Shown piece after piece: positions 2,605-12,613 of a DNA stretch of 22,865 nucleotides (position 1 is its first letter; each line of letters opens with the position of its first letter). Source of the DNA: a virus; IMG/VR virus record IMGVR_UViG_3300044611_001959, positions 1-22,865 of that record; one strand, 5' to 3'. The position numbers were made by a program, and so were the translations under genes. Below the pieces are notes generated by a model. It was not told where the DNA came from, ran no database searches, and saw nothing but the letters and a program-made list of their open reading frames with translations.

Positions 2605-2687
2605 CAGCTCAGCGCCCCGATCAGAAGGGCGGCGCCGATGGCCAGCACGGCCAGCACGATCAATGTCGTCACGAAGGCGCGGATCAT
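2604..2687 (-). CDS. 27-residue single-span membrane peptide
   Basis: A tiny frame starts at an ATG overlapping the stop of the YdaT-like gene (ATGA) and ends in an ATGA overlap with the Ogr-like gene. The overlaps on both sides are the main argument that it is translated. After Met-Ile-Arg the peptide is almost entirely Val, Leu, Ile, Ala and Gly over residues 5-26, which predicts one transmembrane helix. No family is recognised. It may be a small inner-membrane protein of the phage (for example an exclusion or regulatory peptide) or merely a device to couple Ogr translation. Function is unknown. Confidence 0.6.
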   Translation of the reverse strand: MIRAFVTTLIVLAVLAIGAALLIGALS

Positions 2688-3274
2688 TTCGTTACCCCCT
2701 TGGCCTTGCGCCGCAGCAGCCGGCTCATCAGGGCCAGCGCCCGCTGCCCGGCCGCCGCCAGCCGCGACAGCTTCACCTTGGCCGCCTCCGGCTCGCCCGT
2801 GTCGACGCCGTCCAGCAGTGCCGACATCGCCACCTCGGCCGCCGCCGCCGTGGTCACGATCTCGCGAAAGTGCATCACCACCACGGCCGTCTGGTCGCCG
2901 CTCGCGGCGGCCGCGTCGAAGCCGATCGACTGCGCGCTCAATTCCACCGGCTCCAGCAGCGCATTGACCAGCGCCAGCCGGCGCTCCATCGGCAGCGCCG
3001 CCAGGATCGACCACAGGAAGTTGATTGGCAGCAGGTTCTTGTCCTTGGTCGAATCGTCGAGCCAGCGGAAAACGCGGTCGGCATTGACCCGCATCCGTTC
3101 GAACGCGTCGCGGGTCGGCGGGTCGAAATGGATCCCGGCGAGGTGGTCGAAGCCGAGCCGATCATGGGTGCTGACGATCACGTCGGCCACCGTCTCGCGG
3201 CTCCAGCGGTTGTCGCGGCGCCAGGCCTCGGCGTGGTCGCGGATGATGGCGATGGGGGTGCGGGACGTGGTCAT
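2684..3274 (-). CDS. YdaT-like phage regulatory protein (tentative)
   Basis: The protein has 196 residues and lies in the early operon, its ATG overlapping the stop of the upstream gene (ATGA). The central part, about residues 60-110, contains a VFRWLDD segment followed by an LP.ERRLAL stretch. This recalls the Rac-prophage YdaT family, DNA-binding regulators that are toxic on overexpression. The C-terminal 80 residues are Ala-rich, helical and end in a basic tail (RRKAKGVTK). Position between the small early proteins and Ogr fits a control gene of CII or YdaT kind. The family link rests on memory of the motif pattern and is only moderately sure; the gene itself is firm from codon use and coupling. 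Confidence 0.7.
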   Translation of the reverse strand: MTTSRTPIAIIRDHAEAWRRDNRWSRETVADVIVSTHDRLGFDHLAGIHFDPPTRDAFERMRVNADRVFRWLDDSTKDKNLLPINFLWSILAALPMERRLALVNALLEPVELSAQSIGFDAAAASGDQTAVVVMHFREIVTTAAAAEVAMSALLDGVDTGEPEAAKVKLSRLAAAGQRALALMSRLLRRKAKGVTK

Positions 3275-3584: not shown

Positions 3585-3785
3585 CTATGCTGTCGTCAAC
3601 GGTGGCGTCGCTATGACGAAAGGCAGCCCCTTCAAATAGGCCTCCCTCGCCAACGCCGACCGGCTCACGTTCCGTTCGGCCGCGATGCGAGCCGCATCTT
3701 TCAATTCGCCGGGCATCAGCCGCAGCGCGATCGGCTTCGTTTTGACGATTCCCGCGGGGTTGCGGGAGTTGTGCGGCTTCTGCAT
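3585..3785 (-). CDS. Small ribbon-helix-helix-like protein, first gene of early operon
   Basis: This 66-residue basic protein has a short strand-like stretch (KPIALRL, about residues 17-23) followed by two predicted helices. This is the layout of Arc/CopG/MetJ-type dimeric DNA-binding proteins. It starts at an ATG with an AAGGTGA ribosome site seven bases upstream. It is the first gene after the leftward promoter, the place where P2-like phages put Cox or a Cro-like protein. It may therefore control the switch or excision. No catalytic motif is present. The fold call is by pattern only; an unrelated small helical protein remains possible. Confidence 0.72.
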   Translation of the reverse strand: MQKPHNSRNPAGIVKTKPIALRLMPGELKDAARIAAERNVSRSALAREAYLKGLPFVIATPPLTTA

Positions 3786-3811
3786 AGTGTCACCTTGAGG
3801 AAGTGTTACAC
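3786..3811. promoter_or_regulatory. Direct repeat AGTGTYAC, operator candidate
   Basis: AGTGTCAC at 3786-3793 and AGTGTTACAC at 3802-3811 lie 16 bases apart start to start, immediately upstream of the small early gene and over the predicted start point of its promoter. The second copy recurs as a perfect palindrome at 4324-4336. A regulator bound here would block leftward transcription. Confidence 0.5.
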
Positions 3812-3812
3812 G

Positions 3813-3842
3813 ATTTTAGGTAGCTGTTTAGCTACTTGTCAA
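3813..3842 (-). promoter_or_regulatory. Leftward early promoter
   Basis: On the minus strand a perfect -35 box TTGACA (3842-3837) is followed after 18 bases by TAAAAT (3818-3813), five of six matches to the -10 consensus. The start point would be near 3806, about 20 bases before the ATG of the first early gene. It faces away from the repressor gene and is overlapped by operator-like repeats, as expected for a temperate-phage lytic promoter. Confidence 0.75.
3820..3835. promoter_or_regulatory. Inverted repeat GTAGCT-N4-AGCTAC, repressor operator candidate
   Basis: A perfect inverted repeat with six-base arms and a four-base centre (GTTT) lies wholly between the -35 and -10 boxes of the leftward promoter. 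It also lies just upstream of the repressor start at 3858. A dimeric helix-turn-helix repressor bound here would cover the promoter. Which protein binds is inferred. Confidence 0.6.
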
Positions 3843-3857
3843 GGGAAATTTTGCCGA

Positions 3858-4205
3858 ATGGCGACTATTGGGGAAAGACTCAAGGCGGAGCGGGTGCGCC
3901 TGAAATACAGCCAGGAGGCGTTCGGCGATGCCGCCGGCGTGGGTAAGCATTCTCAAATTCGCTATGAAAAAGGGGAGCGGTCGCCGGATGGCGACTATCT
4001 CGCGGCGATCGCCAACCTCGAAGTCGACGTGTTGTTCATCATCACCGGGCATCGCCAGCCCTACCTTGCTGAGTCGGAAGATCTGCGAGACACCTACCTG
4101 ACGCCCGCGCGTCGCCTCGCTGGTGATATTGCCGGCATGAACCTCAGCCCCGATGATGCCGAACTGTTGCTCACCATTGCGCAGCGACTCCGCCCACCGG
4201 GCTAG
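3858..4205 (+). CDS. XRE-family (Cro/CI-type) phage repressor
   Basis: This 115-residue protein opens with a helix-turn-helix of XRE type at about residues 5-60. The motif runs GERLKAER, then SQEAFGDAAGV as the turn, and a YEKGERSP hallmark, followed by the typical DVLFIITG strand near 65. There is no LexA-like protease domain, so it is the short P2 C-type repressor rather than a lambda CI type. The ATG at 3858 was chosen because the HTH starts directly after it and because a longer frame from 3771 would run back through the promoter into the divergent gene. It is transcribed opposite to the early operon, with the operator-like repeats between them. Probable role: keep the early promoter silent and maintain lysogeny. 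Confidence 0.88.
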   Translation: MATIGERLKAERVRLKYSQEAFGDAAGVGKHSQIRYEKGERSPDGDYLAAIANLEVDVLFIITGHRQPYLAESEDLRDTYLTPARRLAGDIAGMNLSPDDAELLLTIAQRLRPPG

Positions 4206-4323: not shown

Positions 4324-4336
4324 CAGTGTTACACTG
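4324..4336 (+). promoter_or_regulatory. Perfect palindrome CAGTGTTACACTG with extended -10
   Basis: A 13-bp perfect palindrome shares AGTGTTACAC with the divergent operator region at 3802-3811. Inside it TG-t-TACACT (4327-4335) fits an extended -10 element, which would start transcription near 4342, about 20 bases before the ATG at 4363. No good -35 is seen. Binding here would shut off the secreted-protein pair. Confidence 0.5.
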
Positions 4337-4362: not shown

Positions 4363-4605
4363 ATGCGCATACGATCGATCCTGCTCCTTGCCATATTTCT
4401 GTCGACCGCTGTTGCTGCGCGTCAGGCGTACCCGGCGAACAAGCCCTGCAGTGGAAAGAAGGGCGGCATCTCGCATTGCATGGGCCAGTTCTTCATCTGC
4501 CGCGACGGCACCACCAGCCAGTCGAAGAAGGATTGCCGATCGTTCGGCGGCGTGCACGATCAACGACCGGAGCCGGCGCCGAAGGAAAAGGGGAAGCGCA
4601 AATGA
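4363..4605 (+). CDS. Small secreted four-cysteine protein
   Basis: This 80-residue protein has a clear Sec signal peptide: basic start MRIR, hydrophobic core at 6-17 and a likely AVA-A cut near residue 18. The mature part is small and basic, with cysteines at 29, 39, 46 and 58 that could form two disulfides in the periplasm. It carries a CSGKKGGISHC stretch and a QSKKDC stretch that I recall from small uncharacterised bacterial proteins. The C-terminus is Lys/Pro-rich. ATG 4363 is preferred over GTG 4351 because GGGGGA just upstream then serves as ribosome site. It overlaps the next gene (ATGA). It is not needed for virion building, and its plus-strand place beside the repressor suggests a lysogenic-conversion gene. 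Function is unknown. Confidence 0.72.
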   Translation: MRIRSILLLAIFLSTAVAARQAYPANKPCSGKKGGISHCMGQFFICRDGTTSQSKKDCRSFGGVHDQRPEPAPKEKGKRK

Positions 4606-4916
4606 ATGCACGATGGATACTGCTGCTGGCGTTTGCGATGGTTGCTTGTGCCGACGACCCATTGCCGCCGCGCACCGCCGCGGTCAAGGCCGCCGACTAT
4701 GGCGACGCATGGCCGCTGTTGGCCCTGCAGGCGACCCTCGGTTGCGACCCGCCCTCGATCGTCTACATCGAGTTGAACGGCAAGCGCTACGGGCTCAACG
4801 GCAAGGCGCTGAGCGCAGGCATGCCGCGCGGCGATGAGATTTCGAAGTCCGGGAACGCCGCCGCGCTCACCGTGTTTATACAGCCCGCGCTGGCGCTGTG
4901 TCCTGGTCGATACTGA
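4602..4916 (+). CDS. DUF2511-like putative lipoprotein
   Basis: This 104-residue protein begins with a signal sequence ending in MVAC, with C16 as a possible lipidated residue. The methionine three before the cysteine makes the lipobox imperfect, so a plain Sec signal is also possible. The mature part has the pattern of DUF2511 (YebY-like) periplasmic proteins: YGDAWPL, a cysteine in LGCDPP, then an ELNGKRYGLNGKA strand pair. C48 and C100 may pair. The ATG overlaps the stop of the four-cysteine gene (ATGA), so the two are co-translated and both exported. Together they look like envelope-directed cargo of the prophage. The family call is moderate and the role unknown. Confidence 0.65.
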   Translation: MNARWILLLAFAMVACADDPLPPRTAAVKAADYGDAWPLLALQATLGCDPPSIVYIELNGKRYGLNGKALSAGMPRGDEISKSGNAAALTVFIQPALALCPGRY

Positions 4917-4943
4917 TCGCCGTCCCGCCAGCGCCGACTTTTT
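4887..4943 (+). terminator. Possible terminator after the cargo genes
   Basis: GCGCTGGCG (4887-4895) pairs perfectly with CGCCAGCGC (4926-4934), followed by CGAC and five Ts (4939-4943). The 30-base loop is long for an intrinsic terminator. It lies at the point where plus-strand cargo genes meet the end of the minus-strand tail operon, where a stop is expected. The T-run overlaps the gpD stop codon. Confidence 0.4.
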
Positions 4944-6306
4944 ACCCTGGAATCTCCGTCGCCCGGATCTCCAGTTCAACCGTCGTCGTGTAGCCCGCGT
5001 CCGTCACGTTGTGCACCACACGGCTGACGATCCAGTCCGTGCCGTCGATCGATGGCTTCCAGCCGCGCACCGTGGCGGGCAGCTCGGGGATCAGATCCGG
5101 GCGGCCGCTGGCCAGCGTGATCGAGAAGGTTGCCACGCCGCGCTGCAGGCGTCGCCATTCGGCCCGTGCGCCGCGGCGGGCATTTTCCCTGGTGGCATAG
5201 ACGTGCCGCAGCGTCTTGATGTTGTCGGCGCCGTGCTCGATGGCGACGTGCGGCGCGCCGCTTGCTGAGCGTGCCTGTGCGGCGGCGGCGTCTCGCGCGG
5301 CGAGGCCGGCGGCGTTGTTCTGTTCCTTCGCTTCATCGGCGCGGCCGTAGCTCACCTTTCCCGACGTCTTGAGGTTGCGGTCGTCGTAGGCGACCTCGAC
5401 GCCCGCATAGCGGGTGCGGAAGGCCGTGTTCTTTGCGCGCCGCTTCCATTCCTTTTTGGCGTGGCGAAGGGCCGCATGGCGGCTCTTGGCGGGCCGACCG
5501 CCCAGCAGCAGGTACTCGGCCTTGGGCTCCGGCGTCGGCGCCGCCACGGGCGTCCTGCGCGTGCTCTCGGCGGCGTCCTCGTTCTTGCCCCAGACGATCT
5601 CGCCCTTTTCGCCCTTGGCGATGTCGTACCAGGTGGCGCGCACATGGGTGTAGCTCTCGCGGTCGGCGATGGCGAAGCGGTGGCTGTCGCCGCTGCTGCG
5701 TTCGATCAGCACGACGGGGAAGGGCTTGCCGCTGGCCGAGGTGCCGCGCCCGGCGTGGATGAACAGCAGCCGGCCGTTCTTCACCGCGGCGATGGCGTCG
5801 AACTGGCGCGCCAGGCGCGTCAGCAGGTTGGCCGACGATTCATTGGTCTGGTCGATGTGGTCGACAACGATTTCGGCCAGCGACATCGAGACGGACGGAA
5901 TCAGGTCGTTCTCGGTGGCGATGGTGCGCACAATGTCGCGAATCATCTTGCCGTGAAACGAGCGCTCGCGCTGGGTGGTCAGCCCGCTGCGCAGATCCGC
6001 GCTGCGCGCCCGCACGGTGAGCTTGTCCGGCGCGCCGCTGTGCTCGAGCTCGTCGACGGTGTAGCTGCCCTTGTCCACCAGTGTGGCGCCGGCCTCGGAC
6101 GCCCATCCCAGGGCGAGGCGGATCAGCGCGCCGCGCGGCGGCAGATCCAGCTTGCCGTCGCTGTCGTCCAGATCGATGTCGAGCTGGTCGGCTTCGAAGC
6201 CGCGATTGTCGGTGAGGGTGAGGCTCACCAGGCGGTCGGCGATCCTGGCCGTGATGTCGGCGCCATCGACGGAGAGCGTCCAGGCCGGGCGCGAATGTGC
6301 GTCCAT
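4942..6306 (-). CDS. D: Tail/late control protein gpD
   Basis: This 454-residue protein is of the phage late control D family (P2 gpD, Mu gp44-like hub). gpD forms the central baseplate hub at the tip of the tail tube, against which the tape measure and the gpV spike sit. It opens with the family's short strand-rich domain (about 8-95, with a DLDDSDGKLDLPPRG segment) and ends in a domain with PDLIPELPATVRGW and DWIVSRVVHNVTDAGYTTTVELE, typical of the family. It is longer than P2 gpD (about 387), partly through an Ala/Arg-rich low-complexity stretch near residues 325-350. It is the last gene of the late operon; its ATG follows gpU by 13 bases, as in P2. Confidence 0.93.
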   Translation of the reverse strand: MDAHSRPAWTLSVDGADITARIADRLVSLTLTDNRGFEADQLDIDLDDSDGKLDLPPRGALIRLALGWASEAGATLVDKGSYTVDELEHSGAPDKLTVRARSADLRSGLTTQRERSFHGKMIRDIVRTIATENDLIPSVSMSLAEIVVDHIDQTNESSANLLTRLARQFDAIAAVKNGRLLFIHAGRGTSASGKPFPVVLIERSSGDSHRFAIADRESYTHVRATWYDIAKGEKGEIVWGKNEDAAESTRRTPVAAPTPEPKAEYLLLGGRPAKSRHAALRHAKKEWKRRAKNTAFRTRYAGVEVAYDDRNLKTSGKVSYGRADEAKEQNNAAGLAARDAAAAQARSASGAPHVAIEHGADNIKTLRHVYATRENARRGARAEWRRLQRGVATFSITLASGRPDLIPELPATVRGWKPSIDGTDWIVSRVVHNVTDAGYTTTVELEIRATEIPG

Positions 6307-6864: not shown

Positions 6865-9366
6865 CTACTCGGCGTCGGTCAGTCGGCTGCGGTGTCGCGC
6901 GGCGCGCTGGGCGTCGAGCTGCTGGATCTGGCGCGCCACTTCGCGGCCGATGTCCTCGGGCGATTGGCCGGGAGCGCCGGTGATCTGGAAAATATAGGTG
7001 TTGCCACCACCGCCGGCCGTGCCACCGGCTTGAGACAGTGCCGGGCGGGTGTCGATGCGCGGCAAGTCGCCGGCCAGCGCCGCACCGCCGATCAGGATGC
7101 CGGCGCCGGCAGCGGTAAGTTGCTTCGCGGCGGCCGCCATCGCGCCCAAGGGGCCTTTGCGCGCCGCCTCGATGCCTTGCTCGAGGCCGGCCATGGTGTA
7201 GCCGCCGATCTCGGCGAACACGGCCGACGGCGAGCGGATGCCGAGCTTGTCCTTGAGCCAGCCCACGGTGCTGTCGGCAAGGCCCGTCATCAGCGATTTG
7301 AGAGCTTCCCAGCGGGAGTTGATCCCACTCATGATGCCGTCCACGATCGCCGCACCGGCGGCCATGAAGCGGCCGGGCAGGGTGCCGAACCAAGTCACCG
7401 TCTCGCCGAATTTCGTCTTGATGATCTCGACCAGGTCGAACAGCGCCGCGCCCAGTGTCGTCTTGTGGCCGAGCAGTTTCGACACCAGCCAGTCGATGCC
7501 GGCATTGAGCAGCGTGCCGGCCGCGTAGCCGGCGGCGAAGGCAGCGGCCACCTTGGCGATGGGGCTGACGAAGGCCCACAGCGCCGCCATCGTGCCGCCG
7601 GCGGATGCGCCGATGGCCGCCAGGCCGAACTTGAACAGGGCAATGGGCGCGAGCAGGCCGCCCACCGCCACCAGCAGCACGCCGATCACCGTCACCGCCA
7701 GCGACAGCCACTTCACCGTTGTCATGATGCCGCTGGCCAGCGCCGGATTTTCCTTGGCCCAGTCGCGCACCGCCTGCAGGATGGCCAGCGTCTTTTCCAT
7801 GGTCGCCACCAGCGCCGGCTTGAGGTGTTCACCGAGGTCGCTGGACAGGTTGAACATCGCGTTCTTCGCCATCGTCATCCTGGCGTTGATGGTGTCCTTG
7901 CGTGCGTCGGCTTCGCGCTGCATCGATCCCTTGGCGCGCGCCTCGTTCACCAGCGTCAGTTGCCGGCGGTATTCGTCCAGGTTCTCCGCCAGCTTCGCGG
8001 CATCGTCGCCATATTCCTTGCCGAACAGCCGCGTCGCGGCTTCGAGCTGCTTCTCCTGCGGCAGCGCCTTGATCGCCTCCAGCACCTTGATGATCGTGCC
8101 CGTGGCGTTCTGCGACATGCCGAGCTGCAGGCTCTTGGCGTCGAGCTTCAGCATCTCCAGACCGCCCCTGAAGCGTTTGGTCTGCATCGTCGCTATCGAC
8201 AGCTCGCGGATCATCGCGTTCGACGCGCTGGCGGCCACCTCGGGCACGGCGCCCAGGCTGAGGAAGGTGCTGCCCAGGGCGGCGGCCTCGCGGAAGTTCA
8301 TCTTCACCATCGCGGCCGTACCGGCGATACGCTGCATCACGTCGATGATGTCGCCGCCCTTGGCCAGCGCGTTGTCGTCGAGCCAGTTGATGGTATCGCC
8401 CAAGGCCTTGATGTCCTTGATCGGGATCTTGTAGAGCTGCGAGATCTTGCCGATGCTGTCGCCCACCCGATCCACCGGCAGATCGAAGGCGTGCGCCATC
8501 ACGGCCGTGGTTTGCGCGTAGATCAGCAGGTTTTCCTTGCCCTGGATGCCCATGCGTGCGCCGGCCTCGACGATCTTGGCGATTTCCACCGTCGTCATCG
8601 GGATCCGCTCGGACATCGTCTTGATGGCGGTGCCCATTTCGAAGTAGGTCTTCGTCAGTCGGCCGTTGTCGTCGCGTGCGCCATTCACCTGGCGCGCCAC
8701 GCCCAGCATTGCGTCCTCGAAGGTGGCGTAATCCTTGGCCGCCTTGACCGCCGGCAGGCCCAGCGCGGCGCCTGTGCCGGCCGTGGCCATGCCCACCTCG
8801 CGCAGCTTCGCGGCGCCGGCCATGGATCGGTCGTAGTTCGCCTTTGCCGCGTGCATTCTGGCCAGCACCTTGTTCTGGTCCTGCAGCGCGCCGGAGAGTT
8901 TCACCACCGAGCGCGCCGCCTCGATCTGCCGCGTAGCCAGATCCCGGCAGTGGTTGGCCAGGTTGCCGGTGTCGATGCCGCCGGCCTTCATCTGCGCGAA
9001 GAGTCGCTGCTGCTTGTCCATCAGCCCGGCGTGGCGGTGCTTGAGGGTGTCGGACTCGGCCTGGGCATCCTTCAGCGCCTTGATCATCGCCCGCGTCGGC
9101 TCCGGCGTCTTGGCCATCTGCGCTTGCAGGTGCTTCACCTGTTCCTGCACGCCCTTGAAGGCGTTGGCGGTGATCGCTGCCGCCTTGTCGGCGTCCTTGA
9201 AGGCGGCGATGGCCTTCTGCTGGCCCTCGATGTCCTTGAGCTGGTCCTTCGCCGCGCGCAGCGCCCGGGCGGCGTCGCCGCTGCCCTTGGTGATGGCTTT
9301 CAGCGGGCCGGTGACCTTGTCGATCGCGGCCAGCAGGACTTCGAGGCGGAGCTTTTCCGTACTCAT
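6865..9366 (-). CDS. T: Tail tape measure protein gpT
   Basis: This 833-residue protein is the size of P2 gpT (about 815). The first 170 residues are helical and Lys/Ala/Gln-rich, likely coiled coil. Next comes the conserved tape-measure domain (about 190-420) with ATFEDAMLGVARQVNGARD, as in the TP901-type family. A strongly hydrophobic double span follows at about 550-585, then a small-residue-rich region with GIRSPSAVFAEIGGYTMAGL near 740. gpT sets tail length and is probably threaded into the host membrane on injection. The ATG overlaps the stop of the E' frame (ATGA), matching the P2 order E-E'-T. Confidence 0.95.
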   Translation of the reverse strand: MSTEKLRLEVLLAAIDKVTGPLKAITKGSGDAARALRAAKDQLKDIEGQQKAIAAFKDADKAAAITANAFKGVQEQVKHLQAQMAKTPEPTRAMIKALKDAQAESDTLKHRHAGLMDKQQRLFAQMKAGGIDTGNLANHCRDLATRQIEAARSVVKLSGALQDQNKVLARMHAAKANYDRSMAGAAKLREVGMATAGTGAALGLPAVKAAKDYATFEDAMLGVARQVNGARDDNGRLTKTYFEMGTAIKTMSERIPMTTVEIAKIVEAGARMGIQGKENLLIYAQTTAVMAHAFDLPVDRVGDSIGKISQLYKIPIKDIKALGDTINWLDDNALAKGGDIIDVMQRIAGTAAMVKMNFREAAALGSTFLSLGAVPEVAASASNAMIRELSIATMQTKRFRGGLEMLKLDAKSLQLGMSQNATGTIIKVLEAIKALPQEKQLEAATRLFGKEYGDDAAKLAENLDEYRRQLTLVNEARAKGSMQREADARKDTINARMTMAKNAMFNLSSDLGEHLKPALVATMEKTLAILQAVRDWAKENPALASGIMTTVKWLSLAVTVIGVLLVAVGGLLAPIALFKFGLAAIGASAGGTMAALWAFVSPIAKVAAAFAAGYAAGTLLNAGIDWLVSKLLGHKTTLGAALFDLVEIIKTKFGETVTWFGTLPGRFMAAGAAIVDGIMSGINSRWEALKSLMTGLADSTVGWLKDKLGIRSPSAVFAEIGGYTMAGLEQGIEAARKGPLGAMAAAAKQLTAAGAGILIGGAALAGDLPRIDTRPALSQAGGTAGGGGNTYIFQITGAPGQSPEDIGREVARQIQQLDAQRAARHRSRLTDAE

Positions 9367-11594: not shown

Positions 11595-12047
11595 TCATCG
11601 GTGGGCGATGGCATCGACCAGGCCAATGATCGCGGCCTCGAGCATGGCTGGGCTGGGCACCTCGTCGAAGCGCGCCGTCCAGCCGTTGATGACCAGGTCG
11701 CCGGCGACCATTTCCGAGCAGATCACGCCGCCGCGATTGCGCGTCGACTTTCCCAGCGCGTGGTACAGCGGCCGCAGCGCGAACATCAGGTAATCGGTAA
11801 AACCGTAGGTGGCCTCGTCGGTCTCCAGCCGGTGTTCGAGGAAGTCGCGCGAGATCGCCACAGGGCATTCGGCGAGGATCACATTGGCCGGGTCGTACAT
11901 GCCCGGCCACACCCGCCGCCGGCGCAACAGGTTCATGTCCCAGAAATGTTGCCCGTCCGTGAAGCCCACGTGGTAGCAGGTGGACCCGGTGAACAGCTTC
12001 GTCAGCAGAGAGGACGGCTGCTTGCCGTAGATGAAGGCGATCTTCAT
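11595..12047 (-). CDS. Permuted papain-like (NlpC/P60 superfamily-type) protein
   Basis: This 150-residue protein has two motifs in the order typical of circularly permuted papain-like enzymes (YiiX/YebB type). A His motif CYHVGFTDG has H26, and a late Cys motif GGVICSEMV has C110 followed by Ser-Glu. D37 or E60 could be the third residue. Such proteins are amidases or acyl-cleaving enzymes of cell wall or lipids. It has no signal or membrane span. The ATG at 12047 overlaps the stop of the DUF4376 gene (ATGA) and has GAGGAA upstream. It lies between the tail-fibre cluster and the sheath gene, where P2 has no such gene. It may act on host surface polymers or on a virion protein. The enzymatic role is inferred. 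Confidence 0.65.
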   Translation of the reverse strand: MKIAFIYGKQPSSLLTKLFTGSTCYHVGFTDGQHFWDMNLLRRRRVWPGMYDPANVILAECPVAISRDFLEHRLETDEATYGFTDYLMFALRPLYHALGKSTRNRGGVICSEMVAGDLVINGWTARFDEVPSPAMLEAAIIGLVDAIAHR

Positions 12048-12613
12048 GGTTGAGGTTCCTCGAACACCGCTGGCCAACCAGCACGCCAGTCATAAGCAGC
12101 CGGATCGGCACAGGCCGCCAGGGCCGCCTTGTGCACCTCGGCCGCGGTGAAGATGGCGGTGTCGGAAAGCGCCGCCGCCATGAACACCTGGCCAGCCAGC
12201 GCCGGCGTCATGGCCACAAAGCTGCCGTCCATCGTCTTCCACTGCAGCCCCGCGGGAATGTTCGCCCCGAGCTGCACCAGCCCGAGCTGCTGGATACGTG
12301 ACAATTCGTCGGAGTGGAACCACTTGCCCGAGGCGAGATAGCCGCCATCGCGCGTGAGCCGATCGCGCTCGATCTTGATCCAGCTCCAGATCATCGCCTC
12401 GACCTGCTCGCGTGGCTTGGGCTCGGCGGTGAAGGTGCCGTCGCCGTTGTCATGCACAAAATGGAAGCGATCGTCGGGGCGCGTGTCGTTCGGTTCGTCG
12501 ACGATGCCGAGCTCGGCCAGCATCTCGGATGAAATGGGCCAGGGATAAAACACCCCATCGGCGGTGACGCCGTTGCGGATGTCGGGAATGGGCTGACCGT
12601 TGCGTTTGAACAT
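12044..12613 (-). CDS. DUF4376 tail-fibre-associated protein
   Basis: This 189-residue protein has a short N-terminal domain (about 1-60) ending in DNGDGTFTAEPKP. A DUF4376-type C-terminal domain follows at about 85-175: LTRDGGYLASGKWFHSDELSR, LGANIPAGLQWKTMDGSFV and MTPALAGQVFMAAALSD. DUF4376 proteins lie next to tail fibre genes in many phages and often replace the chaperone gpG; they are thought to assist or cap the fibre. It begins three bases after the receptor-binding protein gene and overlaps the papain-like gene. Position supports a role with the fibre; biochemical activity is not known to me. Confidence 0.8.
   Translation of the reverse strand: MFKRNGQPIPDIRNGVTADGVFYPWPISSEMLAELGIVDEPNDTRPDDRFHFVHDNGDGTFTAEPKPREQVEAMIWSWIKIERDRLTRDGGYLASGKWFHSDELSRIQQLGLVQLGANIPAGLQWKTMDGSFVAMTPALAGQVFMAAALSDTAIFTAAEVHKAALAACADPAAYDWRAGWPAVFEEPQP

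What the first reader, a model, noticed from the sequence alone, without database searches (positions are those of the whole stretch)
4363..4916. Two coupled exported proteins as likely lysogenic-conversion cargo
A four-cysteine secreted protein and a DUF2511-like putative lipoprotein overlap by ATGA. They sit on the plus strand beside the repressor, opposite to all virion genes, and end at a probable terminator. They play no evident part in virion building. Possible roles are envelope stress tuning or exclusion of other phages.
Basis: inference. Interest (0 to 1): 0.6.

Follow-up and report, generated by a model that had tools for sequence, protein, structure and literature searches.

The report
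Two exported-protein genes beside prophage repressor
A P2-like prophage carries, directly behind the gene that keeps it dormant, two overlapping genes for small proteins sent to the bacterial surface layers; unrelated phages have put members of the same two families in the same spot, so the pair is probably made by the dormant phage for its host's benefit, perhaps to fend off other phages.

Summary
Two plus-strand genes (4363-4605, 4602-4916) overlap by ATGA, follow the repressor (3858-4205) and converge on the late tail genes. The first encodes an exported four-cysteine YdcA-like protein (PRK10040/phrog_6000). The second encodes a DUF2511 protein with a lipobox.

Comparison supports the 'lysogenic cargo' reading. 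Two other phage contigs keep repressor-YdcA-DUF2511 in order; in one, all three reading frames overlap. DUF2511 alone sits directly behind the repressor in PSP3-type phages (cI-DUF2511-int) and in a Pseudomonas luteola prophage. YdcA alone sits there in Haemophilus phage HP2, inside the annotated lysogeny operon, and in other P2-like and Mu-like phages. Phage 186 has no cargo there. Related phages fill the slot with exported nuclease, OB-fold, toxin-antitoxin or candidate-defence genes. Both genes look under purifying selection. An 11-bp palindrome at the lytic promoter recurs in the pair's conserved leader.

Transcription in lysogens is inferred, not shown. Function is unproven: phage exclusion is slightly favoured over envelope or antimicrobial protection, since DUF2511 includes copper-operon YebY and is related to lantibiotic-immunity MlbQ. 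New member of a known kind, repressor-operon cargo. The useful part is the recurrence of the same two exported families in one slot.

The parts
4363..4605 (+). YdcA-like (PRK10040/phrog_6000) exported protein, 80 aa, four conserved cysteines
4602..4916 (+). DUF2511 (YebY/MlbQ-like) protein with lipobox, 104 aa; overlaps the previous gene by ATGA; conserved C48 and C100
3858..4205 (+). Phage repressor (HTH_3, DicA/RstR-like), first gene of the presumed lysogeny operon
3585..3785 (-). Arc-like regulator, first gene of the presumed lytic transcript
   Evidence: phrog_3431, 1.3e-10
3813..3842 (-). Lytic promoter-like site, TTGACA-18-TAAAAT, 11 of 12 matches
3820..3835 (.). Inverted repeat GTAGC-N6-GCTAC between the -35 and -10 of the lytic promoter; candidate repressor operator
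   Evidence: sequence; inference
3803..3811 (.). Palindrome GTGTTACAC at the predicted start of the lytic transcript
4325..4335 (.). Second copy, perfect palindrome AGTGTTACACT, 27 bp upstream of the YdcA start codon
4326..4362 (+). Conserved leader of the pair, 35 of 37 bases identical to L002
4887..4943 (+). Terminator-like stem and T-run at the end of the DUF2511 gene (weak evidence)
4942..6306 (-). gpD baseplate hub (late tail gene) converging on the pair; marks the far edge of the cargo slot

Best explanation
The pair is lysogenic cargo in the slot between a P2-like repressor and the convergent tail operon. It is most likely transcribed behind the repressor (with or without its own conserved leader) while the prophage is dormant. 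The first protein is exported to the periplasm and the second is lipid-anchored, probably in the outer membrane because the residue after the lipid-bearing cysteine is not aspartate. They are made at one place by coupled translation and plausibly act together in the envelope. The likeliest purpose is to protect the lysogen from other phages at the envelope (superinfection exclusion), as other repressor-linked cargo does. Shown: anatomy, families, conservation, recurrence in the slot. Inferred: expression in lysogens (about 0.8) and the exclusion role (about 0.5 given expression).
For: Same gene order repressor-YdcA-DUF2511-(gpD convergent) in L088, where repressor/YdcA overlap as GTGTTGA and YdcA/DUF2511 as ATGA; repressor-YdcA-DUF2511 also in L002. 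DUF2511 directly behind cI and before int in five opened phage records, 8 bp after cI in PSP3. DUF2511 between repressor and gpD in a P. luteola plasmid prophage. YdcA directly behind cI in HP2, whose record names pL as the promoter of the lysogeny-maintenance genes; behind the repressor in L055, one gene further on in Mu-like L066 and two further on in L053. Phage 186 pL drives the lysogenic operon and has no gene between cI and int, so the slot is optional cargo. Slot neighbours in relatives match PADLOC candidate defence models: PDC-M53A 8.9e-33 and PDC-S48 in L055, PDC-S48 3.8e-8 in L140; BrnT/BrnA in Acica. Precedents: Ltp, an exclusion lipoprotein of the lysogeny module transcribed in the prophage (PMC3952083); bstA transcribed from the cI promoter (PMC7067206; its anti-phage role is from memory). 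Purifying selection.
Against: No expression data exist for this phage. The window has 157 bp between repressor and YdcA with its own palindrome, so the pair may be regulated apart from the repressor. No PADLOC model matches either protein. No experiment known to me links YdcA or DUF2511 to phage exclusion. Known DUF2511 relatives point elsewhere: YebY to copper, MlbQ to lantibiotic immunity. Many phage YdcA genes lie among tail or early genes, not next to repressors.
Confidence: 0.42

Rival explanations
1. Lysogeny-expressed fitness cargo not aimed at phages: the DUF2511 lipoprotein binds or keeps off an envelope-acting compound (as MlbQ does for a lantibiotic) or handles copper (as suggested for YebY), with YdcA as periplasmic partner.
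For: The DUF2511 profile matches the MlbQ structure 2mvo over residues 26-100 with both cysteines aligned (E 0.00045), and 2mvo is the top, though non-significant, fold hit. MlbQ confers resistance to NAI-107 (PMC4828448). YebY is encoded with the copper genes pcoC and yebZ (PMC3548706).
Against: No copC/copD-like neighbour in the window or its relatives; slot relatives carry candidate defence and toxin-antitoxin genes instead.
Confidence: 0.3
2. The pair is not simply lysogenic: its own leader palindrome makes it respond to the switch proteins, so that it is repressed in stable lysogens and expressed during establishment or induction, e.g. to block competing phages during the lytic cycle.
For: AGTGTTACAC occurs at the lytic promoter start and again in the pair's leader, and GTGTTACAC is found only in this clade among 1.73 Mb of loci held; the leader is 35/37 identical to L002.
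Against: In L088 the second palindrome is absent and the pair overlaps the repressor gene, which leaves read-through from the repressor as the simplest source. Eganvirus and HP2 homologues have no late-gene linkage.
Confidence: 0.15
3. Passenger genes of no current use, picked up from host DNA and drifting.
For: Host yebY lies at the edge of several P2-like and lambdoid prophage contigs, a possible source of capture.
Against: dN/dS about 0.3, intact frames and conserved order across three diverged phages; independent recurrence in one slot.
Confidence: 0.08

Closest known systems
Salmonella phage PSP3 gp28 and its Eganvirus relatives (cI-DUF2511-int)
   Same: DUF2511 gene directly behind the immunity repressor on the same strand, in a P2-like phage.
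   Different: No YdcA partner, no lipobox (plain signal peptide), integrase follows; about a third identical over the matching core.
P2-like prophage on Pseudomonas luteola plasmid NZ_CP044087
   Same: Repressor (+), DUF2511 (+), gpD (-): the window's layout.
   Different: No YdcA; the DUF2511 domain hangs on a zinc-ribbon-like stretch and a hydrophobic, TM-like segment instead of a lipid.
Haemophilus phage HP2 cI-YdcA-orf1(S)-int
   Same: YdcA-like gene (unannotated) directly behind cI in the pL lysogeny operon, followed by another protein with a signal-like N-terminus.
   Different: Partner is an OB-fold tRNA_anti-like protein, not DUF2511.
MlbQ (2mvo) and E. coli YebY (7n0j)
   Same: DUF2511-type domain with two conserved cysteines; MlbQ is also a lipoprotein.
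   Different: Cellular genes in lantibiotic and copper clusters; sequence similarity to the window protein is remote.
Ltp of Streptococcus phage TP-J34
   Same: Small lipoprotein encoded in the lysogeny module and expressed in the prophage (PMC3952083).
   Different: Gram-positive host; no similarity to YdcA or DUF2511 was found or looked for here; its exclusion activity is proven, ours is not.

Membership tests
DUF2511 (PF10709) | Score over Pfam's curated cut-off | tested here: met
   21.2 against 21 bits, only just; residues 28-71
DUF2511 (PF10709) | WPL motif, LNG motif and two conserved cysteines | tested here: met
   W37-P38-L39, L65-N66-G67, C48 and C100 aligned across ten sequences (one chromosomal homologue reads VNG)
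DUF2511 (PF10709) | YebY/MlbQ fold | tested here: inconclusive
   Model confidence too low (pLDDT 55); MlbQ is rank 1 but at E 3.1
YebY of the copper AZY operon | Adjacent copC/copD-type genes | tested here: not met
   Neighbours are the repressor and gpD
YdcA (PRK10040) | Score over an NCBIfam equivalog cut-off | tested here: not met
   73.9 bits against 93 (NF007463), E 6.5e-21: a homologue, not an equivalog
YdcA (PRK10040) | Core PCx(4)GG[IV]SHC..F[IV]C..G..S.SK..C behind a signal peptide | tested here: met
   Alignment of 28; phrog_6000 8.7e-19
Repressor-operon lysogenic conversion genes | Directly behind the repressor on its strand, not conserved in all relatives | tested here: met
   Window, L002, L088; empty in 186, other cargo in HP1, L140, L141, AP3, Acica
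Repressor-operon lysogenic conversion genes | Transcribed in the lysogen | not testable with these tools
   No RNA data for this phage
Superinfection-exclusion lipoproteins (Ltp, Cor, Llp type) | Blocks infection by other phages | not testable with these tools
   Needs plating tests

The most novel reading that the evidence does not exclude
YdcA and DUF2511 form a two-part envelope exclusion system of temperate proteobacterial phages: a periplasmic cysteine-rich module and a membrane-tethered DUF2511 module that together stop incoming phage DNA or block a receptor. The repressor slot of P2-like phages would then be a shared exchange site for such exported modules (YdcA, DUF2511, SNase, OB-fold).
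Probability: 0.2. Interest if true: 0.75.

Novelty: new member of a known kind. Interest (0 to 1): 0.45.

Why it matters
It gives a concrete, small and testable reading for two uncharacterised exported families, one of them present in E. coli as YdcA. If the slot behind the repressor selects for exported guard proteins, it becomes a simple rule for finding new exclusion or envelope-protection genes in Gram-negative temperate phages, where such genes are often left unannotated (as in HP2).

Tried and rejected
Copper role by neighbourhood: no copC/copD-like gene near the pair. Known defence model: PADLOC finds none for the pair. Wide presence of DUF2511 in sampled host chromosomes: 0 of 14, 1 of 399 and 1 of 369 genomes; the Burkholderiales hit L130 lies in a frame that looks like argJ and was dropped. 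First genome contigs and viral scans with the DUF2511 protein found nothing. DUF2511 hits in L205 and in G008 and G016-G018 are host yebY at prophage edges, not phage cargo; those in L216, L217 and L219 were not resolved. YdcA fold: model of middling confidence (pLDDT 71), no significant PDB fold match; a weak profile match to a Legionella Dot/Icm core protein (7muc_AN, whole-sequence E 0.00018, best domain 0.0045) is kept as a lead only. The 2022 and 2025 AZY operon papers are not held, so their findings on YebY were not used as evidence.

Full report
What is there. The window is a 22.9-kb virus record with P2-type tail genes on the minus strand: gpD at 4942-6306 and, by its sequence and place, the tape measure at 6865-9366. 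Towards low coordinates lie an Ogr-type activator (2314-2604), a CII-like activator (2684-3274) and an Arc-like regulator (3585-3785), all minus. The repressor (3858-4205) and the two genes in question are on the plus strand.

Identity. ORF1 is a YdcA-like protein: PRK10040 models down to 6.5e-21 (below their equivalog cut-offs) and phrog_6000 at 8.7e-19, with no Pfam family. Its four cysteines are invariant in 28 homologues. ORF2 is a marginal Pfam DUF2511 member, better supported by phrog_2950, by profile comparison with a chromosomal DUF2511 protein (probability 96%, E 1.7e-9) and by a match to solved MlbQ (E 0.00045). The window protein, L002 and L088 all place a lipobox cysteine at the end of the hydrophobic stretch. 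The domain is tethered differently elsewhere: a plain signal peptide in PSP3 phages and a zinc-ribbon-like stretch plus hydrophobic segment in P. luteola.

The genes are kept. Between the window and L002 dN/dS is 0.34 (YdcA) and 0.31 (DUF2511), against 0.24 for the repressor. The pair occurs in the same order in L002 and in the more distant L088 (YdcA 42%, DUF2511 55% identical). In L088 the repressor's last codons overlap the YdcA start (GTGTTGA) and YdcA overlaps DUF2511 (ATGA), so the three genes look like one transcript there.

The slot. DUF2511 follows cI and precedes int in all five phage records opened (PSP3, SI22, Midge, 613R3, RCIP0057); five further records in the same hit list (duplicates, SEN1, SW9) were not opened. 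In phage 186, the type of this group, cI adjoins int and the record states that pL transcribes the lysogenic operon. In the P. luteola plasmid prophage the order is repressor, DUF2511, convergent gpD. YdcA follows cI in HP2, in the operon of pL, which that record describes as driving the lysogeny-maintenance genes; HP1 has other small genes at that place. YdcA also follows the repressor in L055 and lies one or two genes behind it in Mu-like L066 and L053, and behind an HTH gene in Legionella erythra L098. Near relatives by gpD hold other cargo: exported SNase plus a zinc-ribbon OB-fold protein (L141), BRCT-type and other genes (L140). Burkholderia AP3 has a hydrolase and a glycosyltransferase; Acidovorax Acica has a protein with two hydrophobic segments and BrnT/BrnA. 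Two slots carry PADLOC candidate-defence matches. YdcA is also placed before exported nuclease genes, or fused to one (L098, L129, L105). YdcA is not confined to the slot: many phage copies lie among tail or early genes.

Regulation. A strong minus-strand promoter-like site lies at 3842-3813. GTGTTACAC sits at its expected start point and again 28 bp before the YdcA start codon; the expected number in the window is about 0.02, and in 1.73 Mb of loci it occurs only in this clade. The pair's 37-bp leader differs from L002 at 2 positions although 29-53% of synonymous sites in the neighbouring genes differ. L088 keeps the first copy but not the second. The Arc-like protein is more alike between the window and L088 in its N-terminal strand region (TKPIALRLMPGEL) than the repressors are in their HTH, so my guess is that the Arc-like protein binds this site and shuts off the cargo on induction, by analogy with Cox/Apl of P2-like phages, which repress the lysogenic promoter (PMC7498355). 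This is inference.

Function. The placement argues for benefit to the lysogen. Cargo in equivalent positions includes the exclusion lipoprotein Ltp (PMC3952083) and bstA, transcribed from the cI promoter (PMC7067206). On that analogy, and on the candidate-defence company in the slot, I rate phage exclusion highest. MlbQ-like protection from an envelope-acting compound comes close behind, and copper handling is a weaker form of that rival. None of these was tested.

Limits. The host is unknown. Structure models were poor. Recurrence counts are of opened records, not a random sample, and the YdcA set was gathered with words from ORF1 itself.

Noticed in passing
L103 1732-2652, L105 5986-6921, L111 5941-6876: YdcA-like domain fused in front of a secreted DNA/RNA non-specific endonuclease (Pfam shown for L105, PF01223, 1.8e-36) in methanotroph MAGs; in L098, L117 and L129 YdcA is followed by a separate SNase-like exported protein.
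   Followed up: partly
L082 3001-3165 (AY027935.1 2492-2656): Haemophilus phage HP2 has an unannotated YdcA-like gene between cI and orf1(S).
   Followed up: yes
L205 7802-8137, also records of L017, L033, L035, L038: Several P2-like and lambdoid prophage contigs end beside host yebY (DUF2511), a possible route by which phages picked up the gene.
   Followed up: no
L095, L099, L101, L108 and similar loci: YdcA-like proteins of Alcaligenaceae carry a second C-terminal module, roughly C.C.SG.YCTGPRGG.YC.T.SG.K.Y, with no Pfam match (tested for L095).
   Followed up: no
7muc_AN (PDB): The YdcA profile weakly matches a small cysteine-rich protein of the Legionella Dot/Icm core complex (whole-sequence E 0.00018, best domain 0.0045).
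   Followed up: partly
L002 from 5579: Behind DUF2511 this contig continues on the plus strand with an open frame that reads by eye like a ParB N-terminal domain, instead of gpD: probably more cargo.
   Followed up: no
window 11595-12077 (-): 160-aa open frame between tail genes with no Pfam match; its HVGF and CSEM motifs recall NlpC/P60-type amidases (by eye only).
   Followed up: no
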